Source: Anisus vortex (Eukaryota; Mollusca; Gastropoda; Planorbidae). Taken from it: a stretch of DNA of 64,000 nucleotides. Each line of letters starts with the position of its first letter. The stretch's first letter is position 1. The notes beneath the pieces were generated by a model that did not search any database, was not told the DNA's origin, and was given only the letters and a program-made list of their open reading frames with translations. The stretch covers positions 3,899,024-3,963,023 of the forward strand of contig OX421497.1 in assembly GCA_949126835.1 (NCBI GenBank), read 5' to 3'. The position numbers and the translations under genes were made by a program. This document shows positions 1,195 through 26,651 of this stretch, in pieces.

Positions 1195-1345
1195 TCCCCA
1201 TCAGGTGGACTCCCGGGTTAGATTCAGCTGGACTCCCGGGTTAGATTCAGGTGGACTCCCAGGTTAGATTCAGGTGGACTCCCAGGTTAGATTCAGGTGG
1301 ACTCCCAGGTTAGATTCAGGTGGACTCCCAGGTCAGATTCAACGG
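1195..1345. repeat. 23-bp minisatellite overlapping the gene A stop codon
   Basis: About six copies of a 23-bp unit containing GGTGGACTCCCAGGTTAGAT. The unit nearest gene A supplies its last codons and the TGA stop at 1316-1318. Confidence 0.85.
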
Positions 1346-1547
1346 CATCCCAGCGCCGTCGTCAATGCCGTGAGTCAGGGCAAGCACGGAGGAGATCCGT
1401 CGGTCGTTGCTCAGCGTCGGCTTCCTCTGGCTGGTGTCCATGCTGGTCCTGGAGGAGCTGTCGGCGAAGCAGGCGTCGGTCGGGCTCGGGGGCTGCGACT
1501 TGAGCCCGTCAGCCTTGGACTTTCGGTACACGGTCGCCTGGGCGATT
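1316..1547 (-). CDS. gene A exon 8: cytoplasmic tail
   Basis: Acceptor TTCCCCTAG joins at phase 2 to exon 7 and completes Val363. The tail begins with basic residues (VYRKSK), consistent with a stop-transfer sequence, and is rich in Ser, Thr and Pro with no recognised domain. It ends WEST followed by TGA inside the 23-bp minisatellite. An upstream open stretch to 1633 is intron read-through. Confidence 0.72.
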
Positions 1548-4500
1548 CTAGGGGAACAATCGAAGAGTGTATGTGTGTGAGACTGAGCTGTAGTTAATGA
1601 TCCGAGCTTCGTAGTCTTTCGGCGAGGGCACATGATTATTGGATAAATATTGTCCTGTTAGATGTTCTCAGATAATATTGCCATTTAACATAGATTCTTA
1701 GATAACTATTGCCCTTTAAGATAGATTCTTAAATAACTATTGCCTTTTAAGATAGATTCTTAGATAACTATTGCCCTATAATATAGATTCTTAGATAACT
1801 ATTGCCTTTTAAGATAGATTCTTAGATAACTATTGCCCTTTAAGATAGATTCTTAGATAACTATTGCCCTTTTATATAGATTCTTAGATAACTATTGCCC
1901 TTTAAGATAGATTCTTAGATAACTATTGCCATGTGAAAAAAAATAACTTAAATAACTATTGCCATGTGAAAAAAAATAACTTAAATAACTATTGCCATGT
2001 GAGAAAAAATAACTTAAATAACTATTGCCCTGTGAGAAAAATTATCAGATAACTATTGCCCTGTGAGATACATTGTGTGTGCTAGGGTGGCTGGGCTTTA
2101 CGGCGAGCCAAACATTTATCTGTGACCACACAACGATAGAAAAATACAAACTTACACACTGAGAATGGCTGCACTGACCAGCATAACAAGGGAAATGCCC
2201 ACAATAATGGTTGCCATGGACGCGTCGCTCATAGCTGTTCAAGATGGAAATCTTTGTTAAATAAAAGCCTATGGATCTATCATTAGTTGACCAAAAAAAA
2301 AAAAGCAACAAATATTTTGTTCCATACGGTAAGATCATTTATCGAGACCGGGTTACAAATAAACAAGTTTTTCGTTTAAAGAAAATGCACCCACTTTCGA
2401 CGTCGGTCAGCGAACGCCGCCTAAAATTAGCCGGCCACATAATCCGCTAGCCTGATCATCGGCTGACCCAGATGGCGGCCGCCCAATGGACGACGCGGAC
2501 AAGGGGCGACCTAAAAACAACATGGCGTACAACCATCGCCGATGACCTCCTATCTGTTGACGTAAATTGGGACGACATCAATGCCGTTACAGCAGCGGCT
2601 ACGGACAGAGCCCCACTGGAGAAGTCTCATTGCCCGATGCGCCGAACGGCGCGGGAGGGTCTAAGTCTAGGTAAAAGTTTACAGGTAAGTGTAGAAGAGG
2701 TCACTAGTCTAGTTTCATTTGCATATTTTAGATCTTGGAAAAATATTTTGGCGAATGTTGTTTTTTTTTTAAACAGGACGTAAGCATCAGATATTTGGAA
2801 ACACAGTGACGCTTCTGTAAACAGAAACTTCTAGCACAGGGATCGGCAACCTTTACATATGAGTGTGCCAAAGCAGGATTTCTAAATCTTTCAGCGTGCC
2901 AACAACAACCCAAATAGTCATTCTGCTCTAGCACTCAATTTCTTGTAGAAGTGACATGATTTGCCTTTTCGGGTGTCTTCCGCGTGCCATTGAAAATAGC
3001 TCGGCGTGCACGCGTTCCGTAGGTTGCTGACCCCTGTTCTAGCACATACGCATGTCAGCGAAAGACTACTAGAATGACCGTAAAACAAAATACCCTTTGA
3101 TACCAAATTGATCATAGGGCTGGTGAAGCAGCGTTCACCAGTTTATGTGGCCATACTAATGTCAGGTACCCATCAGAGCTGCGTAGGCTCATGGACACCC
3201 TCTAGTCCCGGGAAGAAATCCTAGCCTTCGCTAGGATTCGAGCCCAGAACCTTCGGAACGCCGGTCTTACGCGCTGCCGGCTCGGCCACCTATAATGTAA
3301 TTAGGCCACTTTAGATACTGAGCATATTACTAAAAACATATTTTATTCAGAATGTCCCTCTAGATTCGCTAGCCACTCGGAAATTCTGGTACAAAAAACT
3401 GTCAAGTGGCGGCAGACATTTTTAAAGGTCAGCACAGTGTAATATAATTATAAATTATAATATATATATTTTTTTTTTTTCAGTCGGAAGCTGCCAACTA
3501 TTAAGCAGCAAATAAAGTAAAGCCCCCGTCGGGCCGTGTTGATCCATAGGTCCGATGAAGCAGCGTTCACCAGTTTCTGTGGCCACGGCATACTAGGTGA
3601 TTGTGTGGCCAGCACTATGCATAGCCGCCTTTACTTTACCCCAACTAAGGTCAGGTACCCATCAGTATAAGTATAAGTATAAGTATAAGTACCATTCTCG
3701 GCTTTCGTTAGTCGAGATTTGTCTCGTATAAAAGTCGTATCGGTGCAGCCCGAGACGTCCACGAGGCGGTCCTCCGTGGAGACGTTCCCGCTGCTGTTGC
3801 TCCCGGCACACACGCTGCACTGCTCGCTCATCACCTGGTCGCCGTAGTAGCCCGGCGGGCACCTGAGGCACTGCTTCTTCTCCCTGGACAAGTAGTGTCC
3901 CTTGGAGCAGCCACCTTTGGGAACATTTAAATCACATGAAATCGTAAGGAAAATAGTACCACCAGTTATATAAAAAAGAGTATATCGTCGGGCCATTTTC
4001 GATCCATGGGGTCGGGGAAGCAGCGTTCACCAGTTTCTGTTCCCCCGGGATACAAGGAAATTGTGTGGTCGGCACAATGTCCATCCGCCTTTACTTTACC
4101 CCTATCTTAAAATTAGGTACCCTTCAGAGCTGGGCAGACTCAGGGGAGCACCCTACAGACCTGTTAAATCCTAGCGTTCACCAGGATTCGAACCCAGGAC
4201 CTTCGGTACGCCAGTCGAACGCGCTGCCACCTTTCCCCCATATAAAATAATGTTTTGCGCCCTTCGTTTATCTGTGGTTATGAATCTTGTCTTAGCATTT
4301 CGAGAAAGTGTTTTAAATGATGTGTAAGTTATCGATTTTACTCAAACGATTTGACCAAACTGATCATAGGTCTGATGAAGCAGCCTTCACCAGTTTCTGT
4401 GGCCTCGGCATACTAGGGGATGTGTGGCCAGAACTATGCACAGCCACCTTTACTTTACCCCAACAAATGTCAGGTACCCATCAGAGCTGGGTAATTAATC

Positions 4501-7500
4501 CGGGACAAAATCCTAGCCTCTACTAGGATTCGAACCCAGAACCCTCGGATCGCCAGTCTAACGCGCTGGCGCTCGGCCACCTTGCCTCCTATTTCAAGGT
4601 TTAATACAGTAAAAAAAAAACAATAAAAAATTTTTTAAAAAAAAACAGGGACTTACGGCAGATCATGCCCCGTTTAAGGTCCAAGACGTACGTGGTCCCG
4701 TTTCGGCAGCCAGCGTCCACAATGCAATCTATGCCGGAGTCGCTGGGCAAGCCCAGCTCTTGCGCCACGGCCACGCGCAGCTTGCGTGCCTGGCGCTCCG
4801 TCAGCTCCGCCTCCAGCTCAAAGGAGAAATCCGCCGTAAGCTTCAGATAGAGCTGTGAGGGTGGGGAGAGGGGGGCGGAAGCAGGGGCGTGGTGGGGGGC
4901 GCGTGGGGGAGATTTGTCGAGATGTGAACTATGAACACATGACAATTACCATATGTACTTTATAACCTATGTAGTCCAGCATTGAACAGTTATAAAAGGT
5001 AAATTATATTACAAGTTATAAATATTACAGTGAACCCTCGCTACTTCGCGGTTGGACATTCGCGGATTCACGACTTCGCGGAATTTCTTTTCATTACATT
5101 ATATTGGGAAAATATATTGCGGATTTTATGTGCACCTACTGTTTCATTGATAAACAGTTGTATCTGTCGACTACTGTATGTACATACTGTAGATATATGT
5201 ACATTACTGTGAAGGTCGGTTTGTTAACAGTACGTAAAGGGAGGGTTTTACAAGATCCGAATACACGAGAAATAAATACTGTAAATATGGTGTCCCTACT
5301 TCACGGATTTTCAGCTATCGCGCACGGTCTCGGGACCTATCTACCGCGATAAACGAGGGTTCACGGTTCAATGTACATACACTAGTATTTATGCCCGTCA
5401 AAATGATGGGGAAACGATCGACTGCAATATGCTTTGTTAAAATAATAAAAACAATCAAAAAGGTCAACAACAACAAATAAGAAAATATAAACAATAAAAT
5501 AAAAGCTTTCGTAGCAAGGGAAATCCCATTGAGGAGCAGACAATGCATAATTTGAAAGCATTTTGAAAGGGACATAGCTCTGAATATTTTTTTTCATGGC
5601 ACTCATGTTTACAACCTTAACATAACTAGCAATACGTTTATATAAAAAATAAAAAAGGGATTAGGGATTATATAACATTTGGAATATATAACGTACAGAA
5701 AATAGAACATACAGAATATAGAACATACAGAATATTATAGATCATACATAACATATAACATACACAATATAGAACATACATAATATATAGCATACAGAAT
5801 ATAGAACGTACAAAATATAGAAAGAACAGAATATAGAACTTACAGAATATAAAAAGTACAGAATATATGACATACAGAATATAGAACATACATAATATAA
5901 AAAGTACAGAATATATAACATACATAATTTAAGCATACCGAATATAGAACATACAGAATATAGAACATACAGAATATAGAACATACAGAATATAGAACAT
6001 ACAGAATATAGAACATACAGAATATAGAACATACAGAATATGGAACATACAGAATATAGAACATACAGAATATAGAGCATACAGAATATAGAACATACAG
6101 AATATAGAACTTACAGAATAAAGAACATACAGAATATAGAACACAGAATATAGAAAATACAGAATATAGGACATACAGAATATAGGACACACAGACTCTA
6201 AAACTTACAGAATATAGGACATGCAGAATAAAGGACATACAGAATATAGAACATACAGAATATAGGACATGCAGAATAAAGGACATACAGAATATAGAAC
6301 ATACAGAATATAGAACATACAGAATGTAGGAGATACAACGACAAACTGTTCGAAGAATGTGATCAGTAGTAAAGTTAATTGTGTCTTCCTACTTACAATG
6401 GGAAACTCCCTGCGATCATTAACTAGCTGACCATTGGGCAGTAGGTCCGAAAGACCGGTTTGTTCCAAGCTCTTGGCATCGCAGATCATCGCGGCATCTT
6501 CAACGTGGCATGACGCTAACAAGTTCAACAGTTCACATATTCTGAAACAGACAACCCGTGTGCTACTTATGGATGTAGGGGGCACATCCGGCCGACCGTA
6601 CCATTTTATCCGGGAAGCGAGCGAATCATGTGAAACGACGAGCTGATAAGCTTCCTCAATGTAGCAGATAGCTGAACGAAAAGACTTCACCAATTTAGGT
6701 ATAAAAAATGCAAGATGGAATTCAGGAATGTAGTCAAAAGACACAATAATTGAAAAAAATTGGAGTTTAATAAAAAAAATAAAAAAAATAACAGAAAGTT
6801 AAATGACCTATAAACGAAAGTGTGTCATTGTTTTAATTGACCTACTTGGAAAAGTCTAGAGATTTTCCCGAGGCAAACACAATTTTGATCTTCGACTGTA
6901 TGGACACGATTCTTACACTCTTGCAGTCTGTCTTCATGTTGACCACAAGGGCCATGCTAATATTGTCCGGGTGTAGCAGAACTGTTAAATGATGCTGGGA
7001 ATTAGCATTTGCACGCATGCACATATACACATACACAGTATACACATATACATACATAAACACATTTTATAGTGATTGAGTGGGAGAGAGAGAGACAAAG
7101 AGAGATAGATAGGTAGTTATAGATAGATTAAGATATGTGGATAGATAATAGATAGACAGACAACCATGCAGACAGATATGTTAAGAATAAGTTACATTTT
7201 TTTCCCAATGTGGGAAGGGTAAGGCGTGATATCGTTGTCACACCATACTTGGAGATTCTATGAATCTAACAAATAATCATGGGCCCCGATATCCCCGTGA
7301 AGTTGTTTCACGTAGGTTCGTAAGGACCAATAGAAACGAACCATTTTTAAGACCTTGTGGTTTCGAGACCATACGTGGGCAGTCCCATTATAAGAGTCGT
7401 ACCGAACGGTCATCTGTATCATCACTAGCCTATCATTGTGTCATGGTATATTTTAGCAGTGTAAAAGTTCTTTACCTGTTTGGGTTAAACTTTTATTATT

Positions 7501-9734: not shown

Positions 9735-11164
9735 GGATAGATAGATGAGTGATTGATACACAGATACATTGATAGTCTCAATAAAGTATAATCTACAGAT
9801 AAACTTAACAATTGCAATCTGGAATATAATCTGGCGTCCATTTCTTTTCTTGCACATTGCAACGATAACTGCCCAAATGCGCCACGTCCAGCGCATAGTC
9901 AAACTGTCCAGAACACTCAATGTGCACAGAGATAGTTGATGTCCAGTTCTGTTTAAGGTCCTTCATGACATCTATCAAGGCGTCTGTCTCACACGGATGC
10001 CCTGGGAATAGAATTCATTGACCATAACTTATCTTATCATTGTGTAAGCAAGGGGTCGGCAACCAATGGAACTCGTTCCAAGTCGTCTGGCACGCACAGC
10101 GCTTTTTTAACGGCACGCAAAAGATTCTCAAAGTAGGCAATTAAAGTATTTTCTACATGAAATTCATATCTAGAGCAAGATGACTTTTAGGCTATTTAGC
10201 GCGCTACATGAATTATAAATTCTACTATTATCAAACAGTCGCAGGCTATTGTTGTGTCTTTGATTTCTATTACTTTGTTTTTGTGTTTGTGTCTTTGATT
10301 TCAATTGTTGTATCTTTGTATTTGTATCTTTGATTTCAATTGTTGTATCTTTGTATTTGTGTGTATATGTATGTATTTTGTTGATTTTAACCCCAAATCT
10401 GACCAATATATATATATAAAGTCCTATGTATAATTTGTTTACATCTTGGTTATGTAAACAAAACATCAGGCTTTGTGGGGAGAGAACTTTTACTGATTTA
10501 TTAAGAACGTAAAACTAAAATATTGTCTCACGTTGATTAACTCTATAATAAACTATGGGAACCATTGGCTAAAGAATGAGAATTTTTTACGAATTCAGAA
10601 AAGTGCTGCACGGTTCATTGTTAAATTTGTTTTCCTGGTTTATTCATGTAACCCATTCCATGTCCGGATGCCACTCGGGAAGAAATAGTAGTTATATGCA
10701 TTTGTTCTCGCCTAAGGGATAAGGAAAGTGTTACAACAGATTGTTATTGTGTTGTATTTCTAAATTATTAGAGTTTGATGCCTGATGTACTGTTACTACT
10801 TTACTTTTGACCCTTCTGTCTTCTAGTGTTTCTTGGTTTAGTGATTTAACTATTGGCATTATTCTTGTCAGCTGTGAATATTCACTAGTAATGAGCCTTG
10901 CAGCTCTATTCTGAATTCGTCCAAATTTTTTAGCAATCTATTACAATACTCAAATTAACTAAAAGGAGTTCCGTCACTTAAAACAAAGTGTTCCGTGGAG
11001 AATATCAGAGTCTTCAGTTGAGAACCATTGATTTCAGAGTACCTACCTCGTAAGTCTATGAACCCCAGCACCTGTTTAGACACCAGACTCCAAGTCAGCC
11101 AGTACAAGATAAACGATGTGGAAAAACTAGGAACGGTGCAATGTTCAACAAAACTTGTCAACAT
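1316..11164 (-). CDS. gene A: SVEP1-like single-pass receptor (sushi + ephrin-receptor-like module), 8 exons
   Basis: Spliced minus-strand gene; exons 11164-11047, 10001-9810, 6981-6846, 6541-6397, 4852-4657, 3914-3693, 2234-2156 and 1547-1316. They sum to 1320 nt (439 aa plus stop), with every AG/GT boundary in frame and phases 1,1,2,0,1,1,2. Domain order: signal peptide (about 1-35); sushi/CCP (cysteines 43, 69, 87, 102; Trp94); a two-part middle region (104-262) with scattered cysteines; a GCC2_GCC3/ephrin-receptor-like module (263 onward, CxxGHYL then CxxCPPGYY); transmembrane helix (about 343-365); and a 74-residue Ser/Thr-rich cytoplasmic tail. The sushi, middle, GCC2_GCC3 order resembles SVEP1-type extracellular proteins. 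Type I membrane topology is inferred and the ligand is unknown. Its paralogue is gene B, head to head at 14078. The start was chosen because the ATG at 11164 begins a hydrophobic leader ending in the same DLR junction as gene B. Confidence 0.82.
1650..2075. repeat. 31-32-bp minisatellite in gene A intron 7
   Basis: A dozen or so units built on ATAACTATTGCC. The first eight or so carry AGATTCTTAG; the later ones carry AAAAAATAACTTAA, so two variant blocks are present. Confidence 0.85.
2156..2234 (-). CDS. gene A exon 7: transmembrane helix
   Basis: 79-nt exon between a CAG acceptor and a GTAAGT donor, phase 1 in and phase 2 out. It encodes about 25 residues that are almost wholly hydrophobic ([19 protein letters not shown]), a good single-pass membrane segment. 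The long open frame in another phase here has no other support. Confidence 0.75.
2395..2670 (+). pseudogene. LINE reverse-transcriptase C-terminal fragment
   Basis: Translation gives [11 protein letters not shown], a stop, then a tail with [10 protein letters not shown] and CPMRR, the usual end of non-LTR retrotransposon polyproteins (LGHVIR then GRPKTTWR then CPMRR). It has an in-frame stop and is a dead copy in gene A intron 6. Confidence 0.65.
2837..3036. mobile_element. hAT MITE (Buster-type), 200 bp, TSD TTCTAGCA
   Basis: Termini CAGGGATCGGCAACC and GGTTGCTGACCCCTG form an inverted repeat. An exact 8-bp direct repeat TTCTAGCA flanks it at 2829-2836 and 3037-3044. Non-autonomous. Confidence 0.9.
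3112..3293 (-). mobile_element. SINE-A copy (tRNA-derived), internally deleted
   Basis: Same family as the complete SINE at 42514-42748 in reverse, running from GAAGCAGCGTTCACCAG to the tRNA-like head GCGCTGCCGGCTCGGCCACC. The central CATAGTGCTGGCC block is lost. Confidence 0.75.
3520..3668 (-). mobile_element. SINE-A fragment next to the gene A exon 6 donor
   Basis: The 3' half of SINE-A in reverse (GTCGGGCCGTGTTGATCC to CAGGTACCCATCAG). It ends about 25 nt inside the intron from the exon 6 donor at 3692, separated from it by a short TATAAG tandem. Confidence 0.75.
3693..3914 (-). CDS. gene A exon 6: ephrin-receptor-like (GCC2_GCC3) module
   Basis: 222-nt exon, phase 1 at both ends. Reads GCSKGHYLS, then [10 protein letters not shown], then CSVC, the cysteine pattern of the Tyr-kinase ephrin A/B receptor-like family. 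Over the 38-residue core I count 24 identities with gene B exon 6. Two N-x-S/T sequons (NSS, NVS) follow. Confidence 0.85.
3975..4240 (-). mobile_element. SINE-A copy in gene A intron 5
   Basis: Nearly full-length reverse copy from GTCGGGCC to the tRNA-like head at about 4235. With the next copy it makes up most of the 742-bp intron between exons 5 and 6. Confidence 0.8.
4340..4590 (-). mobile_element. second SINE-A copy in gene A intron 5
   Basis: Same family and orientation as 3975-4240; the head reads GCGCTGGCGCTCGGCCACC in the forward strand. Some internal deletion around 4485-4500. Confidence 0.8.
5028..5367. mobile_element. Tigger/pogo-like MITE
   Basis: Termini CAGTGAACCCTCGCTACTTC and, inverted, CGTGAACCCTCGTTTATCGC are characteristic of Tigger/pogo non-autonomous elements. 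About 340 bp, in gene A intron 4. A reverse-orientation fragment lies at 588-960. Confidence 0.75.
5380..5600. repeat. dispersed repeat, unclassified
   Basis: ACTAGTATTTATGCCCGTCA followed by a GACGG/GATGG and GAAACGA block resembles 46525-46600. No terminal repeats or coding could be assigned. Confidence 0.4.
5690..6330. repeat. 16-bp minisatellite (ATAGAACATACAGAAT)n
   Basis: About 40 units of ATAGAACATACAGAAT with 15-bp and substituted variants. It fills gene A intron 4 right up to about 65 nt from exon 4. The Cys/Tyr/Ile-rich frames on the minus strand are read-through of the repeat and not genes. Confidence 0.95.
7890..8000. mobile_element. fragment of the AAAGACTATAATAA MITE
   Basis: GGAGCGTAGAAGTCATTTAA through AGAGCAAGCGGTCCATCT matches the right half of the MITE at 11623-11923. 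No host gene is seen between gene A exons 3 and 2 (6982-9809); the 118-codon plus frame at 7260 has no recognisable domain. Confidence 0.65.
8866..9745. repeat. tetranucleotide array (GATA)n-(GGAT)n-(GATA)n
   Basis: A core of about 660 bp of uninterrupted GGAT (about 9044-9706) is flanked on both sides by GATA runs. It sits in gene A intron 2, within about 65 bp of the sushi exon. The HPSI and MDGW frames on both strands are artefacts of the period of four. Confidence 0.98.
9810..10001 (-). CDS. gene A exon 2: sushi/CCP module
   Basis: 192-nt exon, phase 1 in and out, acceptor TTCCCAG and donor GTTAAG. Four cysteines spaced 26, 18 and 15 residues, plus the Trp of [10 protein letters not shown], define a sushi module. 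The spacing is identical to gene B exon 2. It lies in a different frame from the long repeat frame that runs across it. Confidence 0.88.
10040..10260. mobile_element. hAT MITE remnant
   Basis: AAGGGGTCGGCAACC, then GGCACGC blocks and a body resembling 22230-22446 (ACATGAATTATAAATTCTAC). The right terminus is not recognisable. Confidence 0.6.
10560..10940. pseudogene. mosaic of LINE fragments
   Basis: On the plus strand 10580-10620 reads a LINE-like [12 protein letters not shown]. The stretch 10850-10925 carries the same block in reverse (TAATGAGCCTTGCAGCTC, as at 32440 and 34220). Several diverged pieces are joined, and no intact frame remains. Confidence 0.5.
11047..11164 (-). CDS. gene A exon 1: signal peptide
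   Basis: 39 codons plus one base, donor GTAGGT. The hydrophobic leader ([13 protein letters not shown]) ends IDLR; gene B exon 1 ends TDLR at the same phase, which supports both starts. The promoter lies in the 2.9-kb gap shared with gene B. Confidence 0.72.
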
Positions 11165-11622
11165 CTTCCAGGTTGAAAATAGCCCTTGAACTTTGAACTT
11201 CTTTTAAATTCCAAGATTGATTATACACTAAATATTTAACAACTACTATTTAAAATCGTTTTCCTTGTAATCATCATTGCAATGTTTGTTATAAAAACAA
11301 AAATTCGGTCATTTTATCGCGGAATATCCTTTTTATTTTCAAAGGAGTATCCTTTCATTAAAAGTCCAGTGTAGTATCGCTATAATCTGGCTTGTTTCTG
11401 GTGCGTAAAAAAAAATATTTAAAGAATAAAGAAAACACATTTAACAAAAAATACACATGCAATGGCGAAATATGATGTGAAACTTGAATTCGATTTTTTT
11501 GCAGAGAAATGTGTCCACGATGAGAGGTCGCGTTAAGAATGGACCCAGGTCGAAATCCTAAGTACCTGGTTTATGGAAAGCGGAAAACTGTTTGATGGGC
11601 AAGACTAAAGGCGGCGTCAAAT

Positions 11623-11923
11623 CAAAGACTATAATAAGATGGACCGATTGCTTTGATATTTCTGCTATTTGATGACTCGAATGACTTCCTTTCGGAATTC
11701 CCGATTCTCATTTTTGTACTGTGCACTTCCGTTTTATTTAATTGCCATGATTTTCTCAATGAAAATTTTTAAATTAAAATCGAAAGTTAAATACAGCGGA
11801 AACATTTAGGCAAACGTAGGAGCGTAGAAGTCATTTAAGACATCGTTATTGGATGCGCACGGAAAAAAAACATATTTGCTCTAAAAATAGAGCAAGCGGT
11901 CCATCTTATTATTATAGTCTTTG
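11623..11923. mobile_element. MITE with 30-bp inverted termini
   Basis: Left end CAAAGACTATAATAAGATGG and the reverse complement of the right end agree through GATGGACCG and TTGCT. 301 bp, between the two receptor genes. Partial copies at 7890-8000 and 52940-53380. Confidence 0.75.
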
Positions 11924-12169
11924 AGCAGACAATAGCAGTGATGGGGTTCTACGTTAAGCACAAAGGAGATTGGGAGAAATATCTGAAAGAAAATAGAGAC
12001 GAAAGTTTTAAAAATTTTCCACACAATCAAAAAGTCTTATCTTACATGATTAAGACGCTCCTGCTATAAAGAATATTATTGCGTCCTACGCACATTTCTA
12101 ATAATTCACAACAGTTTTAATTTTAGACTAGATGAGTTTAAAAAATATATTACAAATCTAATTTATAAT

Positions 12170-12480
12170 AATGGTCATTTTTTTTTAATAGCGCTTAAAT
12201 CCATGCTAATAAATTAAGCATGCTTAGTGCGCTCTTGGTGTGAATAGCGGTGGCAGTTGTATTGGTTTGTAAGGCACACAGCCACTAGCCAAAGAGAAAG
12301 GTCTTTAAGCTCTTTAAGCTCTTTTTAAAAGACTCTTTTGTCTCAGATTCTATCAGTGTATGAGGTAAACTTTTCCATAAAGAAGGCGCCACAGATTCAA
12401 ATGAACGAACTCCTAGACACTTCTTTATGTGTCCAGCCACACTGGGAGGTTTAAGGAGTGATTGCGATGAAGTGCGCATG
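12170..12480 (-). pseudogene. LINE reverse-transcriptase C-terminal fragment
   Basis: The minus strand encodes GVRSFESVAPSLWKSLPHTL followed by SFKKSLKSLKTFLF, the standard end of CR1/jockey-type polyproteins. It lies in the shared upstream region of genes A and B. Confidence 0.75.
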
Positions 12481-13129
12481 CCCCTAGATGGCGCATGCTT
12501 TGATATAAGCTCTCGAAGATAGGAAGGAGTAGCCTAGTGCCGTTTACGCATCCGTACGTAAGGAGCACAATTTTGTGGTTTATTCGCTTTATCACCGGGA
12601 GTCAGTGGCGATCCCTTAGAGTTGGGGAGATATGATCTTGCCTCCTCACCCCAGCAACCTTTTTAGCCTACCAAATTATATATCCATGTTCTTGCTTGTT
12701 TTGTTACTCAATATTAAATTGCTTACGCTATGACCGTTGGAAGCGCTAAACAAATAGAGTTCTAATTAGTATATGTTCTCTCTTCATTATCTGCACAGAT
12801 CAGTGCTTTAAGATAAGTGTTCTACTTCTATATGTCAGTGTTGAACGCTTTTATGACGTCATATCCGTTCAGTCGATTCCGGTTGAAAGTCTTCGGAAAA
12901 GAACAATATTTGCGGTATCTCTTTTCAGCTAATCTGCTTTCTGTTGGAGTCAACTTTGTCAAAGCGTAGGTTTAAAGGTTGGTTGACCGTTAACTTGGTA
13001 AAGACTTCTTTGTGAAAACATACAGTAGATTCTATATTGTATACTCACAATCATGTTTGTTTTCTGAAATTTTAGTCATGCAAAGAAAGCGTACAGTTAG
13101 AATAAAAAGTAGATATACTGTAATAATTT

Positions 13130-13560
13130 AAATTTTATATTAAAGACGCTCCTTCTATAAAGAAGATTATTGCGTCCAAAATTTATCCGTGGTCTGAGTC
13201 TAGTCCTGCATTTCTATTAGAATTTTAAATGATGTTAAGTTAATGGTTTTCCTGGTTTGTACAGGCAACCCATTCCATGCCTGGAGGCCCGTCGAAAAGA
13301 AAAAGTACTTTTATGCATTTGTTCTCGCATAAGGGATAAAGAAAATGTTTTTGTCTATATGTTAGTCTGAGCGTTGTATCAGATTGTTTTTGTGTTGTTT
13401 TTTTTCTAAATTAGAGTTGAATGTACCAATCAGCTTATAATACCAAGATGTTCCGATACTTCTATCTTATTGATGTTCTGGCTGGTGGTACAGCTCTCAA
13501 GTAATCCTTAAGAAAACATTATTTAAAATGTGGGATGAAAAAAATCAGAAAAGAGCTGTC
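13130..13560. repeat. LINE-derived dispersed repeat
   Basis: GACGCTCCTTCTATAAAGAA and CAACCCATTCCATGCCTGGA blocks recur at 10630-10760, 12050 and 31480-31690, where one reads AWNGLP. No open frame. The rest of the gap between genes A and B (11165-14077) shows no other gene. Confidence 0.5.
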
Positions 13561-14077
13561 AAACTCATAATAATGAAAGATTCACAATTTTATCTAGTGT
13601 GACTGCGAGAAACTTTATCTTGTGACTGTATGAGAGTGTGACTGTCCGTGTGACTTTGAGTGACAGTGTTTGGGTCACTGTTCCTGCTTGACTTTGAGTG
13701 ACTGTTTCTTGTGGTTGTGTTTGGGTGATGGTTTCTTGTGAGTGTGGTTTGTGTGAGAATTTTTTAGTGTGCGTGTGTATTTGAGCGTATTTCTTTGTTG
13801 TCTGTATTTGTGTCCTTGTGACTTTGTGTATATGCATTACTCTGCTTGAATGCTTCCGTGTGTGTGTATCTGTCTAAGAACCTTTTTTCAATGTGTATTT
13901 CTATGTTGGAAACAGGTGACGATAAAGACAACAGATCACATCTAGCACTCACGTTTGAAATTTGCGGCACTCGGTAGAGTTATTCAGACTCGGCGACAGG
14001 CTCGATCATTGAAAGCCAGTTGCTTGTGTACATCAGCGACTGCAGCTCTACGCTGTATCCACGGACTCTACATCATC

Positions 14078-15815: not shown

Positions 15816-18800
15816 ATGGCTAGTTATGTATAGTTTGCAAGTTGGTAAGTTAGTTATGGTCATTAAGATGGCTAGTTGTTTATAGTTTGCAGGTTGGCTA
15901 GTTAGTTATGGTCAGTAAGATGGCTAGTTAGTTATGGTCAGTAAGATGGCTAGTTAGTTATGGTCAGTAAGATGGCTAGTTAGTTATGGTCAGTAAGATG
16001 GCTAGTTAGTTATGGTCAGTAAGATGGCTAGTTATTTATGGTCAGTAAGATGGCTAGTTAGTTATGGTCAGTAAGATGGCTAGTTAGTTATGGTCAGTAA
16101 GATGGCTAGTTAGTTACCATTACTTTGTCCATTAGCTAGCTGGTTACTTCTTTTGTTGGCTTATTTAGTTAAGTATGTTGTTGCTTGGGCGGTTTGCTTA
16201 GTTACTGATTTATTTAGTTTGTTTTCCACTTGTTTGATGGTTAGATAGTTAGTTAATTAGTTATCTAGTTACTATAATATAATAATAAAAAAATGACATT
16301 TGTATAGCGCTGCCAACATGCATAATGCAAGCTCAGAGCGCATAAAGCCCCACTAATTATTCTACTAGCCCCATCCTTCAATCTACAACATGCCTGCCGT
16401 TACTTCCAGATCAATCCTGCATGTCACCCTCAACCCAGTACCTTCTGCCCGGGGGTCGCGCGCGCTGGTCGGGCGTGATTCAAGTGTCGCTCACCTGTCA
16501 CCTGGGCTACGACCAGCCTCTCAACTCGCCGCCGATGGGCATCTTCACGTGCAGGCCCGACGGGGGCCCCTGGGATCCCGACTATATCCCTGACTGCAAC
16601 CGTGAGTACATCTTACATTTCTCCCTGTCTATTCTTCTGTTCTCTTACAAATTGTGACGACTAGAAGGAAAGATTTATGTTGGGCCATGATGGGGGCCAC
16701 GAGAAAGAAAGATTTATGTTGGGCCATGATGGGGGCCACGAGAAAGAAAGATTTATGTTGGGCCATGATGGGGGCCACGAGAAAGAAAGATTTATGTTGG
16801 GCCATGATGGGGGCACGAGAAAGAAAGATTTATGTTGGGCCATGATGGGGGCCACGAGAAAGAAAGATTTATGTTGGGCCATGATGGGGGCCACGAGAAA
16901 GAAAGATTTATGTTGGGCCATGATGGGGGCCACGAGAAAGAAAGATTTATGTTGGGCCATGATGGGGGCCACGAGAAAGAAAGATTTATGTTGGGCCATG
17001 ATGGGGGCCACGAGAAAGAAAGATTTATGTTGGGCCATGATGGGGGCCACGAGAAAGAAAGATTTATGTTGGGCCATGATGGGGGCCACGAGAAAGAAAG
17101 ATTTATGTTGGGCCATGATGGGGCCACGAGAAAGAAAGATTTATGTTGGGCCATGATGGGGCCACGAGAAAGAAAGATTTATGTTGGGCCATGATGGGGC
17201 CACGAGAAAGAAAGATTTATGTTGGGCCATGATGGGGCCACGAGAAAGAAAGATTTATGTTGGGCCATGATGGGGCCACGAGAAAGAAAGATTTATGTTG
17301 GGCCATGATGGGGCCACGAGAAAGAAAGATTTATGTTGGGCCATGATGGGGCCACGAGAAAGAAAGATTTATGTTGGGCCATGATGGGGCCACGAGAAAG
17401 AAAGATTTATGTTGGGCCATGATGGGGCCACGAGAAAGAAAGATTTATGTTGGGCCATGATGGGGCCACGAGAAAGAAAGATTTATGTTGGGCCATGATG
17501 GGGCCACGAGAAAGAAAGATTTATGTTGGGCCATGATGGGGCCACGAGAAAGAAAGATTTATGTTGGGCCATGATGGGGCCACGAGAAAGAAAGATTTAC
17601 GTTGGGCCATGATGGGGGCCGATGTAATACAGCTTTTTACTTTTGGGACACCAAAAAAATTACATTTTAATAAAAATGTCAGTAAAGTTATATTAGGGGT
17701 TAGGCAACCTGCGGCACGCTTGCCAGACCTGGCATGCATAGCGATTTTTATTAGTAGGCGGAAGAGCATCTATAAAAAAAAGGCAATTCTAGTCTTTCCT
17801 ACAAGAAATTGATTTCTAGAGCAGGATAACTATTAAGTTTTCGGCTCGCTGAATGAATTAGAAATCCTTCTTTGGCACACTATTGTAAAGAAAAGAGATT
17901 GCAGACCTCTGAACTATATAATAAAATACAGGGTGTGTATATATGAGCGTGAGCCTAGACGCGTTTGCGCTGCGTTCAAGATATTGACAACATTTTTTCC
18001 TTGAGGATTTTTTAAAGAGATTTATTTTTTAAGCAAAAAGACTTACCATCTAAAGCAAAGTTCGGTCGCCATTCTTAGGGTGGATGATGGTCACAAGATG
18101 TGATGTTTAGAACTGATAAGACTTTGTTGGCCAAATAAATTGTGATGAAATTAAATATTCACCCAGGGTTAGGTCCTAGGAGAGGTCGGAGGTTACCAAA
18201 CTGTCCACTACAGTAACATTCCTATTTTATCATATTTTATGGTCAGACTTGTGGTATTACTTCGCTGTTCAATACAGCCTAATAAGCCTTATTAAAAAGA
18301 TAAGTAAAGTATCACGTCGGACCAAACTGACCATAGGGCCGGTGAAGCAGCGTTCACCCGTTTCTGTGGCCACGTCATACTAGGGGATTGTGTGGCCAGC
18401 GCAATGCCCAGTAAACTTTACTTTACCCCCAACATCAGAGCTGGGTTGACTCAGGGGACACCCTCAAGTCCCGGAGAAAAAGAAAACCCTAGCCTGCACC
18501 AAGATTCGAACCCAGGACCAGTCGAACGCGTGCCCCGTACAGCCTTATTACCATATAGACATTTGGTGCCCTGGTTTTGTCTTTCACCGTTGTTTATATC
18601 CAAGTCATTTTAGCCTATCCGTTGAATTAAAGAAGACAAAAATGTACGAGTTTTATGTCTCAAAAAAAAAATATTTTGAATTTATTAACTTTCCAGCACC
18701 AAAAAAAAATCTCAGTTGGCAACAATGTTAGCATTTTAAAGCCAGAACACCGCAGTAGGCAATCGCATACGTTTTAAATGTTGCTACCAATCTTGGTTTT

Positions 18801-21800
18801 ATTTTATTTGTTTTGTTTCTCAATATTTTACTCAAATTTATGTTGCATTTTATTTTTCCCCCTTTTTTTAAAGCAATCATTCGACCAGAAAACATTTCTA
18901 TCAACTTAACACTAGACGTAAGTAAGACCTGCGCTACTCTGGGTGCTGCGACCCTCTCGGAAAACAAGAAGACGATCACTTTCTCTGAAGGGAAATCCAT
19001 CAACATTTCAAAGTTAAAGACATTTTAGTTTTTTTTTTTTGTTGTTTTTTTTAATACAAATATTTGTTCCATAGAAAAATTATTTGTTTAAATACACAAA
19101 AAATCTAAATATTTTGGCCGCAACTTAATTTATAAAAAAATATTTTAATATGTATTTTCTAAGCCAGTGTTTCCTATAAGTTTTGGCAACGAAATCTTAA
19201 AACTGTCTTTTTTTAGCGAACCCCCCCAAAAAAAGACTAAACATTATTACAGAATGCTCTCTTTCTTTTCTTATAAGTTTACAGACGTTCCTTCTAGATA
19301 GAAGATTATTACGTCCACTAGGCCCAAAACTCCTGCAGGGCGACAGGGATCTGTCAGTGGCAGGGCTAGAACCCGCGACCTGTCAGTTGGTTTTTGGTTG
19401 ACAGTCCGGTGAACTAACCGCTGGACCAGCCGGCTTCGAGTGGAATTCGTGCATGAAATGGGTTGCCTGGAGAAACCAGCAAAAAGCATATGAACAACGC
19501 ATGAGAATCACTGTTCTACTTTATACAACTGAAACTTTGACAAGCCCTTGTCAGATATGAAAATTTGAATATGAATGTAAACTGAATGTAGGAATTATAT
19601 ACAGTTTATGTGGGCACGGCGTCCGCGCGTTCGGCTGGCGTACCGAAGGTCTTGGGTTCTAATCCATGTGCAGGCTAGGATTTTTCCCGGGTCTGGCGGG
19701 TGTCCCTGCGTCTACACAGCTCTGACGGGTACCTGACCTTAGTTGGGGTAACGGCGGCTGTGCATAGTGCTGGTCGCACAATCACCTTTTTATGCAGTGG
19801 CCACAGAAACTGGTGAACTCTGCTTAGCCGGCCTTAACTTGTTTACTTTGAAAATGTTTACATTCGTTTCTTACATGCAGTTCCTGCAAACTGTTACAGT
19901 CAAAGAAAGATTGCACATTTACGAAAGTTACGATGCCTTGCAAAGAACCTGATTTTAAAGTAAGTAAAACATTTCAATTCATTGTGTTTACAATCTATGA
20001 TTGAATAAACGAACATTTGTGGAAAGTGTTTTCTGGAAATAACATGGGGATGAAATAGTCACCTCCCTCGTGTTGAGATGAATGACTGCAGTCATTCCAC
20101 CAAGGTGCACAGGATTAACTTATCGCCATTAAATACACAAAGTTTTACGCAAATATTCTTTTAGTATTCCGTGAAAAATAATTGGTTAATTCATTAATAC
20201 ATGTTCTATATTTAGAATACATTGGTATAATGCTTCCCTTTTTATTAATATTTTTTTAATGTGGAAATATTGAGAGATAATAAATTCCATTCAAGTATCA
20301 GCAGTTATTAGAAAATAAGGAAAACACATGTAGATGTATATTTTACAAATTTTTTCATGCATGGCATTAATCTCAAAGGGGAAAAAATGTTATTAAAGAT
20401 TCATAGAGGTGTTTTTAGTGGGGGGGGGGGGGGGGAGAACTGGACCGTCAGATGACTAAAGGGTCAAGATTACATTTTTAGTAACAGTTTCTTTTTAAAA
20501 CCGACAATAAAATGAAACTATGTATAAGGTAGATAGAAATGTACAAGTACAATCAAAGACATGTATAATGTCATCGGGGTTGTTTCTTTTGTATTTTTCA
20601 TATTGCTTGTTTATATGTTTACATTTATGTCTCCTCTATAGACTCCTAGACTGTTTAACATATCTGAATGAAAGTTAAATATATAATTTGGAAACGTTCT
20701 CTAAAAGAATTTAGTTGTATTACACGAACTATACTTCTTAATTTGTTAATTTAATTTTGAAACAAACGTATTACTAATTATGTTAATGATATTAACTGGA
20801 ACGCCATTAGTAAAATATCCGGAGTGATGTCCCTTCATATAATGCTTTTCAAATTTACGTGTTGTTTGGTCCTTCCGGGTTTTCACCTTAGTTGGAAAAC
20901 TTTTTTTTTATTGTTTCTTAATTATGCGCTCGGGTTTGCATTATGTTTGTTGGCAGCGCTACACAAATGATATTATTATTATTATTATTATTAATTAAGA
21001 TAGTTTAATACAAGTTCTGATTGCGATAATCTGTTACAAGTGTCTTTAGACTGCCGGAAGAGCTGACAAGTCAAGAACAACTTCCTGCCTACGTCTACTC
21101 CCGACAGCGCCCGTGACACTGTGTTGTTGTTTCTTTCAGCTGCGTGTGACCTTGACATTGGCATACACAGACCTGGTGAACGCCGTGCTGGTGGCCAACG
21201 GCACGGATGGCCTTCTTGAGGACGTGGCCGAGCAGCTCCAGATCCCAGCAAGCAGCTCGGGCAACGGGGCCACCGCCGAGGGAGAAGGGTGCTCGACGGG
21301 GACCGCCGGGGCGTTCGACAAAACGCTGGGCGCCGTTTGCAGTACGTTCACTCCATCCCTAACCATGTTGGCAGAATAATATTGAATGTTATTCACCTGT
21401 ACATGGTTGTGTGTGTGTGTGTGAGTAGTGGGGAAGTAGTGAATCTGGGTGTGTGAGTTAGTGTGTAGGTATGTGGGGAGAGCTCTTTCTGTATGCTCTT
21501 CACCTGCTTGGATCACAAAATTAGAATAAACAAAAATTACATACTAGACTACAACTCTAAACAGCAATGTTGGTCTAAAACTTCAATCTCGGCTCTAATG
21601 TTAGACCAATATTAAGCCAATATTATTGCTGTTAGGGAATATACCTAACAAATGACTTGGCCATTGATATTGCAAGGGTGTGCAAAGGATTCCTAGTTTT
21701 ATTTATGGTCATTGAATGAAATCATCTATACACAGTTGCAATGTGTTTCTTTCTGTGCATGAAAATGATGTAAATAATAAACATTGTTTTCAGAAGGTTG

Positions 21801-23596
21801 TATATTATAATTCTTCTGAGATTGCGACTTTCTACAGTAAATTAAAGTACCCGTCGGACCAAATTGATCCATTAGGCCGGTGAAGCAGCGTTCACCAGTT
21901 TCTGTGGCCACTGCATACGAGGGGATGTGTCGCCAGCACAATGCCCAGCCGCCTGTACTTTACTACAACTAACTAATCAGAGCTGGATAGACTCAGGGAC
22001 ACCCTCGAGTTAAGGGGGGGGGGGGAGATCCTAGCCTTCACCAGGATTCGAACCCAGGACCTTTGGTATACCACTGCACCCCCATGACTTTGTACAGTAT
22101 TTCATTTTTGGTTATCCTATTCGTGTTAGCTAGCAAACAGTTGTTTCTGATGTGGCTTGGTAGATGGAGAACAGGGAAACCCGTTGAGGTTCTGCATCAA
22201 GGTTCTGCGAAAGCCTAGATATCATAATACAGGGATCGGCAACCTATGGCACGCGTGCCAGACTTTTGACGATTTTCGATGGCACGCAGAAGACCCCCTC
22301 CCACCCCACACACACAAGCAATTGAAGTTTCTTCTACAAGAAATTAAAATCTGCAGCAGGTTCACTTTCAGACTGTTGGCTCCCTGGATGAATTATAAAT
22401 CCTACTTCGGCACACTATTACCAAAAAGTTGCCGACCTCAATGTAGTCATAATAGACCTACCTTGTTTTTAAGTTTATAAAGAAAAGTTTATTATGTTAG
22501 AGAAATATAATAATACAAAAATCCCTGTGTGTGTTTTTGATATCATGGCTGTATCCGTTCCCAGGGGGTTGCTCGCTGGGCCACTACCTGTCTACCGTCG
22601 GCCGCACTTGTCTGCCCTGCCCGCCCGGGTACTTCGCCGACTCGCCCATGAGTGAACGCTGCCTGGTCTGCCCGGGGATGCCCAAGGAAGAAGACCTCGA
22701 GGCGTGGCAACAGATCAAGGAAAAGGCCGCGGAAAGGGGCACCGACATCTCCACGTGCCCTATGCCGATCATGAGGCCCAGTAAGATGGCGAATAGCACT
22801 ATAGGTACGTGAAGCAAAGCGTTTGTTTATAAACAAAAACTCAAGAGGCTATTCGCACATTGAGCTACAGTAGACGTACCACACCTAAAAAGAAAACAAC
22901 TAATCGTCGACGCCGGTATTCTTCCGTCTACAAGAAAGGACGGGTTTCTGAACATGGTAGTTAAGCTGAACAATCTAACCATTCAGTGGCCAGCCTTTCT
23001 TTGTGAACAATCCAAGCCTTGTGTGGCAAGTCTCTCTCTCTTGGTGAACAGTCCAAGCCTTGAGTGGCAACTCTCGCTTGGTGAACAATCCAAGCCTTGA
23101 GTGGCAACTCTCTCTTGGTGAACAATCCAAGCCTTGAGTGGCAACTCTCTCTTGGTGAACAGTCCAAGCCTTGAGTGGCAAGTCTCTCTCTCTTGGTGAA
23201 CAGTCCAAGCCTTGAGTGGCAACTCTCGCTTGGTGAACAATCCAAGCCTTGAGTGGCAACTCTCTCTTGGTGAACAGTCCAAGCCTTGAGTGGCAACTCT
23301 CTCTTGGTGAACAGTCCAAGCCTTGAGTGGCAACTCTCTCTTGGTGAACAGTCCAAGCCTTGAGTGGCAACTCTCTCTTGGTGAACAGTCCAAGCCTTGA
23401 GTGGCAACTCTCGCTTGGTGAATAGTCCAAGCCTTGAGTGGCAACTCTTGCTTGGTGAACAGTCCAAGCCTTGAGTGGCAACTCTCTCTTGGTGAACAGT
23501 CCAAGCCTTGAGTGGCAACTCTCTCTTGGTAAACAGTCCAAGCCTTGAGTAGCAACTCTCTCTCTCTCTTGGTGAACAGTCCAAGCCTTGAGTGGC

Positions 23597-25286: not shown

Positions 25287-25321
<35 letters not shown>

Positions 25322-25757: not shown

Positions 25758-25826
<69 letters not shown>

Positions 25827-26651
25827 TGAGCAGTCCAAGCCTTGAGTGGCAACTCTCTCTCTCTCTTGGTGAGCAGTCCAAGCCTTGAGTGGCAACTCTC
25901 TCACTCTCTTGGTGAGCAGTCCAAGCCTTGAGTGGCAACTCTCTCTCTCTTGGTGAGCAGTCCAAGCCTTGAGTGGCAACTCTCTCTTGGTGAACAGTCC
26001 AAGCCTTGAGTGGCAACTCTCTCTTGGTGAACAGTCCAAGCCTTGAGTGGCAACTCTCTCTTGGTGAACAGTCCAAGCCTTGAGTGGCAACTCTCTCTTG
26101 GTGAACAGTCCAAGCCTTGAGTGGCAACTCTCTTTCTCTCTTGGTGAACAGTCCAAACGGCGCGGTGCTATCAGAGAAGGGGCACACAAAGCAGAGGAAT
26201 GCAGGATATTAGAGTTGTCCGAAATAAAAGGGAAAGATTGACAATATGGCAGAAAACTTTTACACACGAAATGCAAGAAAGACTGGCCACTGAATCTATA
26301 GATACACACATTAATCTATCTTTTTACTAATCTTATAAATCTATCTATCAATCTATCTTTCTATTTATATATATATATACATCTATTAAATAATTAATCT
26401 ATCTATCAATTTATTTGTCTGCCTATCTTTTTCTTTCTTTCTCAATCAATCTATCCATCTACCTAGCTAGCCTATTTATCCAGCCACTTATCTACCCATC
26501 TGTTTTATCCCCCCCCCCCTCTATTGCTTTAGCTGTTGGGCAAGCTATGAATGGAGGCTGCTGGATGGAGGCCAAGGTCACTCTGACGCTCACGCTAGGC
26601 TGTTTGTTGTCGGTGATAATCTCACACGTGAACGAACACATTCAAGCGTGA
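14078..26651 (+). CDS. gene B: SVEP1-like secreted or membrane-anchored protein, 7 exons
   Basis: Spliced plus-strand paralogue of gene A. Exons 14078-14192, 16410-16601, 18874-19012, 19881-19959, 21140-21341, 22565-22804 and 26533-26651 total 1086 nt (361 aa plus stop), with phases 1,1,2,0,1,1 as in gene A. Order: signal peptide (hydrophobic FFICLVSAVTA), sushi (cysteines 42, 68, 86, 101; Trp93), middle region, and GCC2_GCC3 module (GCSLGHYLS then CLPCPPGYFAD). The last exon gives a hydrophobic stretch (338-353) and eight more residues, with no cytoplasmic domain. Exon 4 is only 79 nt against 145 in gene A and was found by phase and acceptor. The exon 3 donor (GTTAAA) is weak. The C-terminus may be a GPI-type or short membrane anchor, or a tail exon may have been lost or missed. 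Function is unknown. Confidence 0.8.
14210..14510 (-). mobile_element. SINE-A copy with partial internal duplication
   Basis: TGTGTGGCCAGCACAATGCC appears twice in related form (14263 and 14354), followed by ACTAGGATTCGAATCCGGGA and a degenerate tRNA-like head. In gene B intron 1. Confidence 0.7.
14720..15815 (+). pseudogene. CR1-like LINE, 3' half, with (ATT)n tail
   Basis: It reads FYADDTQLY (reverse-transcriptase active-site motif) at about 14735-14760. An open frame to 15588 follows with SRIDYCNALLAGLP, LHWLPVKARIEYK and PKVWNQLP. The 3' end is GTTTGTTGGCAGCGCTATAC followed by ATT repeats at 15780-15812. Upstream coding is absent, so it is 5'-truncated, but the last 243 codons of the C-terminal part are uninterrupted. 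Gene B intron 1. Confidence 0.9.
15845..16120. repeat. 26-bp minisatellite
   Basis: About nine units of GGCTAGTTAGTTATGGTCAG plus TAAGAT. Flanking TTAG/CTAG-rich DNA (14590-14700, 16120-16270) is related low-complexity sequence. Confidence 0.9.
16262..16350 (-). mobile_element. LINE 3' end, solo
   Basis: In reverse, the same GCGCTCTGAGC and TTGGCAGCGCTATACAAAT end with a short ATT tail as the LINE at 14720-15815. It lies 60 bp upstream of gene B exon 2. Confidence 0.75.
16410..16601 (+). CDS. gene B exon 2: sushi/CCP module
   Basis: 192 nt, the same length and phase as gene A exon 2. Cysteines spaced 26, 18 and 15, with the shared ending [12 protein letters not shown]-rich compared with the flanking introns. 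Donor GTGAGT. Confidence 0.87.
16660..17617. repeat. 39/38-bp minisatellite in gene B intron 2
   Basis: About 24 units containing GATTTATGTTGGGCCATGAT. Units up to about 17115 have GGGGGCC and are mostly 39 bp, which keeps frames open on both strands. Units from about 17120 have one G fewer and are 38 bp. The frames of 120-159 codons are artefacts. Confidence 0.97.
17697..17912. mobile_element. hAT MITE remnant
   Basis: GGGTTAGGCAACC, GGCACGC and a body with GAATTAGAAATCCT matching 22230-22446, ending near GCAGACCTCTG. Both termini are mutated. Confidence 0.6.
18295..18540 (-). mobile_element. SINE-A copy
   Basis: Reverse copy from CACGTCGGACCAAACTGACC to the degenerate head GAACGCGTGCCCC. 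In gene B intron 2. Confidence 0.75.
18874..19012 (+). CDS. gene B exon 3: middle region
   Basis: 139 nt against 136 in gene A. Shared features: PxNIS near the start, a cysteine after about 14 residues, and GKS-x-x-x-SK at the end. The donor is GTTAAA. Reading past it gives a stop six codons later, but exon 4 then fits at the correct phase. Confidence 0.68.
19264..19440 (-). mobile_element. SINE-B copy (tRNA-derived)
   Basis: In reverse it begins GCCGGCTGGTCCAGCGGTTA (A-box-like) and has GCGGGTTCTAGCCC (B-box-like). It ends in GGAACGTCTGTAAACTTATA. Same family as 53168-53336 and 54372-54550. Confidence 0.75.
19613..19850 (+). mobile_element. SINE-A copy ending 30 bp before gene B exon 4
   Basis: Forward copy, head GTGGGCACGGCGTCCGCGCG, then GTTCTAATCC, CATAGTGCTGGTCG and a truncated tail. 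The acceptor of exon 4 is at 19880, so the SINE forms most of the upstream intron boundary. Confidence 0.8.
19881..19959 (+). CDS. gene B exon 4: short middle-region exon
   Basis: Follows CATGCAG, ends at GTAAGT, phase 2 in and phase 0 out exactly as gene A exon 4. It encodes NSCKLLQSKKDC, then MPC, matching the C-x-LL, C and M-x-C spacing of the gene A exon. It is 22 codons shorter than in gene A. It has no ATG-initiated frame of its own. Confidence 0.65.
20880..20995 (+). mobile_element. LINE 3' end, solo
   Basis: GTTTGTTGGCAGCGCTACAC followed by ATT repeats matches the 3' end of 14720-15815. The rest of gene B intron 4 (19960-21139) shows only AT-rich sequence. Confidence 0.7.
21140..21341 (+). 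CDS. gene B exon 5: middle region
   Basis: 202 nt, acceptor TTTCAG, donor GTACGT, phase 0 to 1 like gene A exon 5. It encodes a segment that begins LRVTLTLAYT, contains two cysteines and ends GAVC. Little residue identity with gene A beyond the cysteines and the beta-strand-like start. Confidence 0.75.
21840..22090 (-). mobile_element. SINE-A copy
   Basis: Reverse copy, CCCGTCGGACCAAATTGATC to CACCAGGATTCGAACCCAGG, with a poly-G run near 22015. In gene B intron 5. Confidence 0.78.
22230..22446. mobile_element. hAT MITE, TSD TCATAATA
   Basis: Starts CAGGGATCGGCAACC and runs to a mutated GCCGACCTCAATGTAG. An 8-bp direct repeat TCATAATA lies at 22222-22229 and 22447-22454. It ends 118 bp before gene B exon 6. 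Confidence 0.7.
22565..22804 (+). CDS. gene B exon 6: ephrin-receptor-like (GCC2_GCC3) module
   Basis: 240 nt, phase 1 at both ends, donor GTACGT. GCSLGHYLS, CLPCPPGYFA, MSERC and VCPG form the conserved cysteine core. A charged, probably helical linker follows and then a last cysteine and an N-x-S/T site. GC-rich. Confidence 0.86.
22980..26155. repeat. 37-bp minisatellite with variable CT runs, 3.2 kb
   Basis: Unit CAAGCCTTGAGTGGCAACTC plus TCTCTTGGTGAACAGTC, with CT expansions up to about 70 bp and AACAGTC/AGCAGTC variants. All three minus-strand frames lack stops, which yields a 1070-codon open frame that is not a gene. A higher-order duplication of about 1.06 kb is visible. It fills gene B intron 6. 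Confidence 0.98.
26300..26500. repeat. CTAT/CATC-rich low-complexity DNA
   Basis: Imperfect ATCTATCTATC and TTTCTTTCT runs just before gene B exon 7. Confidence 0.8.
26533..26651 (+). CDS. gene B exon 7: hydrophobic C-terminus
   Basis: Acceptor TTGCTTTAG, phase 1, then AVGQAMNGGCWMEAK, a hydrophobic VTLTLTLGCLLSVIIS and a short polar end before TGA. It aligns in position with gene A exon 7, which starts AM and carries the membrane helix, but lacks that exon's phase-2 GTAAGT donor. ATTAAA at about 26811 is a possible polyadenylation signal. Confidence 0.65.

What the first reader, a model, noticed from the sequence alone, without database searches (positions are those of the whole stretch)
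1316..26651. Head-to-head pair of diverged SVEP1-like receptor paralogues with asymmetric C-termini
Genes A (minus) and B (plus) start 2.9 kb apart. Exon order and intron phase agree at all six shared junctions, sushi exons are both 192 nt with identical cysteine spacing, and both sushi modules end [10 protein letters not shown]. Gene A adds a transmembrane helix and 74-residue cytoplasmic tail; gene B ends after a hydrophobic stretch. A receptor paired with a tail-less partner under a shared upstream region would allow co-expression of a signalling and a decoy or anchored form. The duplication and architecture are seen; the signalling/decoy idea is inference.
Basis: partly seen in the sequence, partly recalled or inferred. 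Interest (0 to 1): 0.78.

Follow-up and report, generated by a model that had tools for sequence, protein, structure and literature searches.

The report
Paired snail receptor genes, unequal tails
A mollusc genome, probably a snail's, carries two back-to-back genes for related cell-surface proteins; one has a conserved inner tail that could signal, the other seems to lack it, and whether they work as a pair is unknown.

Summary
I rebuilt both genes: A, minus strand, 8 exons, 439 aa; B, plus strand, 7 exons, 361 aa. All six shared junctions agree in phase, and A and B match at E=2e-45. GC3 is 0.68 and 0.69, with no CDS nucleotide match at E<=1, so the duplication is old. Two copies were found in the 863-Mb genome. 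One relative each came from Biomphalaria and Bulinus (A-like) and Physella (B-like); they support 7 of A's 8 exons.

'SVEP1-like' is not supported: besides one degenerate sushi-pattern exon, only an Ephrin_rec_like module is recognised. A is best read as a single-pass receptor with a constrained tail (KSxPPSPxxAC, in 4 of 4 tailed proteins). B keeps the ectodomain, has a weaker hydrophobic segment, lacks the donor site A uses, and no tail-like exon was found in the window or 50 kb either side. The B-like Physella protein has the tail, so B's lack is probably a derived loss, not an old decoy design. Co-expression, signalling and decoy function are untested.

The parts
11047..11164 (-). Gene A exon 1: start codon and signal peptide, phase 1 out
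   Evidence: motif GFIDLRG shared with P0002; tblastn with P0002 only E 0.14
9810..10001 (-). Gene A exon 2: 192-nt sushi-pattern module
   Evidence: tblastn with P0002 56% identity, E 2e-20
6846..6981 (-). Gene A exon 3 (region X)
   Evidence: tblastn with P0002, E 5e-7
6397..6541 (-). Gene A exon 4 (region X2, three cysteines spaced as in B)
   Evidence: tblastn with P0002, E 5e-5
4657..4852 (-). Gene A exon 5 (region Y)
   Evidence: tblastn with P0002, E 1e-12
3693..3914 (-). Gene A exon 6: Ephrin_rec_like cysteine-rich module
   Evidence: Pfam PF07699 E 2.8e-4, 21.1 bits, just under the 23.1 cut-off
2156..2234 (-). Gene A exon 7: transmembrane helix
   Evidence: hydropathy 2.81; 20/27 identical to P0002; tblastn with P0003, E 0.006
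1316..1547 (-). Gene A exon 8: cytoplasmic tail and stop
   Evidence: 48/71 identical to P0002, 44/72 to P0003; one match in the genome, itself
11165..14077 (.). Region between the two start codons; at least 971 of 2913 bp are dispersed-repeat or LINE debris
14078..14192 (+). Gene B exon 1: start codon and signal peptide, phase 1 out
16410..16601 (+). Gene B exon 2: 192-nt sushi-pattern module
   Evidence: 32/64 identical to Physella P0001
18874..19012 (+). Gene B exon 3 (region X)
   Evidence: tblastn with P0003, E 0.002
19881..19959 (+). Gene B exon 4 (region X2; lacks about 22 residues present in A)
   Evidence: no row from any of the three relatives
21140..21341 (+). Gene B exon 5 (region Y)
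   Evidence: no row from any of the three relatives
22565..22804 (+). Gene B exon 6: Ephrin_rec_like module
   Evidence: Pfam PF07699 26.2 bits, above cut-off 23.1; tblastn with P0001, E 7e-14
26533..26651 (+). Gene B exon 7: weaker hydrophobic stretch, then stop; no donor at the position A uses
   Evidence: no tail found

Best explanation
A and B are the only two copies found in this genome of a small cell-surface protein family seen so far in pulmonate snails (grouping recalled). Shown: two intact gene models from an old inverted duplication; A has a predicted single membrane helix and a conserved tail; B keeps the ectodomain and has no recognisable tail. Inferred: A binds something outside through its cysteine-rich ectodomain and passes a signal through the tail, most likely by partner binding or Ser-Pro phosphorylation at KSxPPSPxxAC, since the tail has no recognised enzyme domain. 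B lost its tail later, when the splice donor after the hydrophobic exon decayed and translation ran on to a nearby stop; it is now a short-tailed or shed surface protein with its own job, not a dedicated decoy for A.
For: Relatives match 6 of A's 8 exons at E<1e-4 (P0002), the helix exon at E 0.006 (P0003), exon 1 only at 0.14; the tail at E 1e-25 (P0002) and 3e-22 (P0003). Tail identity exceeds ectodomain identity for A v Biomphalaria (48/71 v 129/293, Fisher p=5e-4) and A v Bulinus (44/72 v 111/292, p=5e-4). A+Biomphalaria+Bulinus form a group with 95/95 support, apart from B and Physella. The tail motif is in 4 of 4 tailed proteins, including B-like Physella. A uses GT|GTAAGT; B reads GT|GAACGA at the matching place. 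A four-tail profile finds A (E 2.6e-41) in open segments of 15 aa or more of the window plus 100 kb of flank; next hit E 0.69. Two copies found genome-wide.
Against: No expression or functional data. Biomphalaria v Bulinus do not show the tail/ectodomain contrast (33/71 v 121/290, p=0.50). Counting residues invariant in A, Biomphalaria and Bulinus, the tail (33 of 76) is little above the cysteine-rich module (28 of 74) and below the helix (13 of 27). The Physella protein has the tail but no strong hydrophobic segment (maximum 1.11), and A's signal peptide is the weakest of the five (1.46). B's place beside Physella rests mainly on the sushi exon (50%); over the whole ectodomain B v Physella (91/270) is only just above B v A (85/273), and the tree has very long branches there. 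The tail matches no Pfam family credibly.
Confidence: 0.6

Rival explanations
1. Signalling receptor plus co-expressed decoy or anchored partner, driven from one shared bidirectional control region.
For: Head-to-head order, 2914 bp between start codons, same ectodomain plan, tail only on A.
Against: Gap is wide and about a third repeat debris; the B-like Physella protein has the tail; the three searches found one A-like protein each in Biomphalaria and Bulinus and one B-like in Physella, so the pair may not be kept, though the search is limited; A and B ectodomains are only 31% identical, so they need not share a ligand.
Confidence: 0.1
2. B is mis-modelled: its true last exons differ (another splice form, or a tail exon more than 50 kb beyond the window or lost by assembly error near the 3.2-kb minisatellite between its last two exons), so there is no real asymmetry.
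For: The Physella B-like record is called isoform X1 and has a tail; a long tandem array lies at 22998-26156; no relative's protein matched the last B exon in tblastn.
Against: No tail-like exon in the rest of the window or 50 kb either side; the A tail query finds a single match genome-wide, though a much diverged tail could be missed and the Physella tail query of the genome did not complete.
Confidence: 0.2
3. B is a decaying or non-functional copy.
For: Weaker hydrophobic segment, no tail, shorter X2 exon.
Against: Seven exons open, acceptor AG and donor GT at every junction, GC3 0.69, Ephrin_rec_like module above Pfam cut-off.
Confidence: 0.1

Closest known systems
Uncharacterised proteins: Bulinus truncatus Btru_055935 (P0003) and P0002, an 'ephrin type A/B receptor-like domain-containing protein' (taxon cut at 'Biomp' in the listing, read as Biomphalaria)
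   Same: Same ectodomain plan, transmembrane helix and tail as A
   Different: No function known; gene neighbourhood not visible here
Physella acuta LOC131945236 isoform X1 (P0001)
   Same: B-like ectodomain, A-like tail motif
   Different: No strong hydrophobic helix in this isoform
[quoted passage not shown] passages seen)
   Same: Snail single-pass proteins; A, like the GRC ones, has more than 50 residues on each side of the helix
   Different: Four of seven GRC genes carry fibronectin III; PTC2 genes are reported without known domains; those are clusters, here two copies were found. Sequence relation not tested
SVEP1
   Same: Sushi-type pattern and Ephrin_rec_like module occur together (SVEP1 layout recalled)
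   Different: No vWA, HYR, EGF, pentraxin or sushi array found; A has a membrane helix
Eph and TNF receptor cysteine-rich regions
   Same: Ephrin_rec_like/TNFR-type cysteine pattern; weak fold matches to EphA2 and 4-1BB
   Different: No kinase or other catalytic domain found; model poor, fold matches not significant

Membership tests
SVEP1 | vWA, HYR, EGF, pentraxin and many sushi repeats (recalled) | tested here: not met
   Pfam scans of A, B and 3 relatives list none of these; one laminin/attractin EGF match in B is below cut-off
Sushi/CCP domain | Pfam Sushi PF00084 match | tested here: not met
   0 of 5 sushi exons match at E<=10, though filters drop most weak matches; profile finds no sushi chain among 5 PDB matches
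Sushi/CCP domain | Four cysteines, Trp before the last, single phase 1-1 exon (recalled) | tested here: met
   5 of 5 keep C, C, C, W, C without gaps; 192-nt 1-1 exon in A and B
Ephrin_rec_like (PF07699) | Pfam match above cut-off | tested here: met
   B 26.2 bits (cut-off 23.1); A 21.1 bits, E 2.8e-4, below cut-off; 5 of 5 match at E<=1
Eph receptor kinase | Ephrin-binding domain and intracellular kinase | tested here: not met
   Neither listed by Pfam; A tail about 75 aa
Snail TM1 receptors of GRC/PTC2 type | Single-pass, helix displaced from the ends (over 50 residues each side in GRC) | tested here: met
   A meets it; B does not (9 residues after the hydrophobic stretch)
Snail TM1 receptors of GRC/PTC2 type | Sequence homology to GRC or PTC2 genes, hyperdiverse alleles | not testable with these tools
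   No GRC/PTC2 sequences or population data at hand

The most novel reading that the evidence does not exclude
In this snail lineage B was converted, by loss of a splice donor, into a tail-less surface or shed form that competes with or modulates the tailed receptor A next door.
Probability: 0.08. Interest if true: 0.55.

Novelty: new member of a known kind. Interest (0 to 1): 0.32.

Why it matters
It points to a small snail gene family with a diverging outer part and a held inner tail, a plan often seen in recognition receptors (recalled). The tail motif gives a handle for finding partners. If A proves to act on snail blood cells it would add a candidate to the single-pass proteins already linked to parasite resistance; nothing here shows that.

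Tried and rejected
SVEP1 label: rejected on domain content. More copies nearby: no further match in the rest of the window; in 50 kb on either side the best was E 0.57. Hidden B tail: searched by pairwise alignment, by profile and, with A's tail, genome-wide: none. GPI anchor for B: considered; nine mostly polar residues follow the hydrophobic stretch, which is unusual for that signal (recalled); not excluded. Structure: P0002 aligned with P0003 and P0001 gave mean pLDDT 43; Foldseek had no match at E<=0.001; not used as evidence. Bacterial-type promoter scan of the gap: not suited to an animal, 10 found against 9.2 in shuffles. Papers: passages of four snail papers were seen by term search; 'ephrin' and 'sushi' were asked for in the last two (PMC11426442, PMC12297450) and do not occur there; they were not asked for in the first two. 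No paper of the library holds LOC131945236 or Btru_055935, and none holds three of 'ephrin type A', 'receptor-like domain', 'Biomphalaria', 'snail'. Other paper searches gave listings only. The long table was cut by the tool and seen in part. The first exon join was off by one base at two exon ends and was replaced. The third protein search scored only the 7995 candidates sharing most words.

Full report
Check. I rebuilt both genes from splice sites, reading frames and phase. Gene A (minus) has exons 11047-11164, 9810-10001, 6846-6981, 6397-6541, 4657-4852, 3693-3914, 2156-2234 and 1316-1547. Gene B (plus) has exons 14078-14192, 16410-16601, 18874-19012, 19881-19959, 21140-21341, 22565-22804 and 26533-26651. 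Both frames are open to their stop; every junction has AG and GT; phases are 1,1,2,0,1,1 in both. The start codons are 2914 bp apart.

Chance. A and B align at E=2e-45, with a score of 372 against at most 67 in 300 shuffles. GC3 is 0.68 and 0.69. The coding sequences show no nucleotide match at E<=1, so the duplication is old; the DNA matches between the two gene regions in that call lie outside the exons and look like dispersed repeats.

Relatives. Three protein searches gave three relatives in all: Physella acuta P0001, P0002 (taxon cut at 'Biomp', read as Biomphalaria) and Bulinus truncatus P0003. tblastn against the window: P0002 lands on 6 of A's 8 exons at E<1e-4 and weakly on exon 1 (E 0.14); it gave no row for the helix exon, where P0003 matches at E 0.006. 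For B the relatives give rows on the sushi, X and cysteine-rich exons only. Identities by region: A v Biomphalaria ectodomain 129/293, helix 20/27, tail 48/71; A v Bulinus 111/292, 16/27, 44/72. Tail above ectodomain is significant in both (Fisher p=5e-4 each), not for Biomphalaria v Bulinus (p=0.50). Residues invariant in all three: tail 33 of 76, cysteine-rich module 28 of 74, helix 13 of 27, X2 8 of 49, so the contrast is moderate. B is closest to Physella in the sushi exon (32/64) but not clearly elsewhere. The tree groups A with Biomphalaria and Bulinus (95/95) and leaves B and Physella on very long branches.

Copies. The own genome is 863 Mb in 159 contigs. Protein B finds its own seven exons, two A exons and six weak matches (E 4e-4 and above) elsewhere to the cysteine-rich module. 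Protein A without its tail finds its own seven exons, two B exons and seven weak matches (E 0.09 and above). A's tail finds only itself. The tool warns that only best candidates are scored, so 'two copies' means two found.

Domains. Pfam finds Ephrin_rec_like in both, above cut-off in B and just below in A; related cysteine-rich families (NCD3G, TNFR_c6, TNFR_ELAPOR1_6th) match weakly. Sushi is not recognised in any of 5 exons, though the cysteine and tryptophan pattern is kept. X, X2 and Y match nothing credible. A sushi array with a 2376-aa open frame sits on contig C2 and would be a better SVEP1-type candidate.

C-termini. The best 19-aa hydrophobic mean after residue 200 is 2.81 in A, 2.71 Biomphalaria, 2.57 Bulinus, 1.70 B, 1.11 Physella. 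In A the helix exon ends GT|GTAAGT; in B the matching place reads GT|GAACGA and translation stops after six more codons. No tail-like sequence was found in the rest of the window or within 50 kb on either side. The tailed proteins share K-S-x-P-P-S-P-x-[DE]-A-C-[FY] in 4 of 4 cases. Physella, B-like outside, has this tail, so the simplest history is a tailed ancestor and a loss in this lineage's B. Physella's isoform lacks a strong helix, which I cannot explain; it may be one of several splice forms.

Mechanism. Best reading: A is a membrane receptor whose ectodomain diverges while helix and tail are held, as expected if the tail binds a conserved partner. No catalytic domain was recognised, so signalling would go through bound proteins. 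This is inference. B keeps the outer part and the leader but has neither the tail nor a strong anchor. The decoy idea is possible but has no direct support, and the tail in Physella counts against it as an old design. The gap between the genes holds at least 971 of 2913 bp of repeat or LINE debris (intervals, summed), which does not favour a compact shared promoter but does not exclude one.

Known systems. Snail single-pass proteins in the GRC and PTC2 regions are tied to schistosome resistance (passages of PMC4361660 and PMC7494358). A shares their general plan; I could not test sequence relation. Parasite recognition by A is speculation.

Verdict. A sound observation of two intact gene models; the label and the pairing idea go beyond the evidence. 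Modest interest.

Noticed in passing
window 22998-26156: Long tandem array (unit about 37 bp, mixed with CT runs) in the last intron of gene B; it holds an open frame of 1077 aa on the minus strand, probably chance.
   Followed up: no
window 1201-1341: 23-bp tandem repeat that overlaps the end of gene A: its last residues and stop codon lie in the repeat; P0002 and P0003 end four residues earlier.
   Followed up: partly
window 14698-15585: 296-aa open frame resembling a reverse transcriptase (RVT_1 E 0.0066, below cut-off) inside intron 1 of gene B; related fragment near 12288-12533 in the gap.
   Followed up: partly
window 47932-48177 and 49118-49402, minus: Two neighbouring pieces that match successive parts of the DEP domain profile (E 0.007 and 2e-7, each below cut-off): probably exons of another gene.
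   Followed up: partly
P0001 (Physella acuta): Isoform X1 has the conserved tail but no strong hydrophobic helix.
   Followed up: partly
window 8860-9775, 16663-17617, 36984-37754: Large arrays of 4-bp, 38-bp and 70-bp units.
   Followed up: no
G000:C2:1840621-1847607: Sushi array with a 2376-aa open frame, possibly the true SVEP1-type gene of this genome.
   Followed up: no
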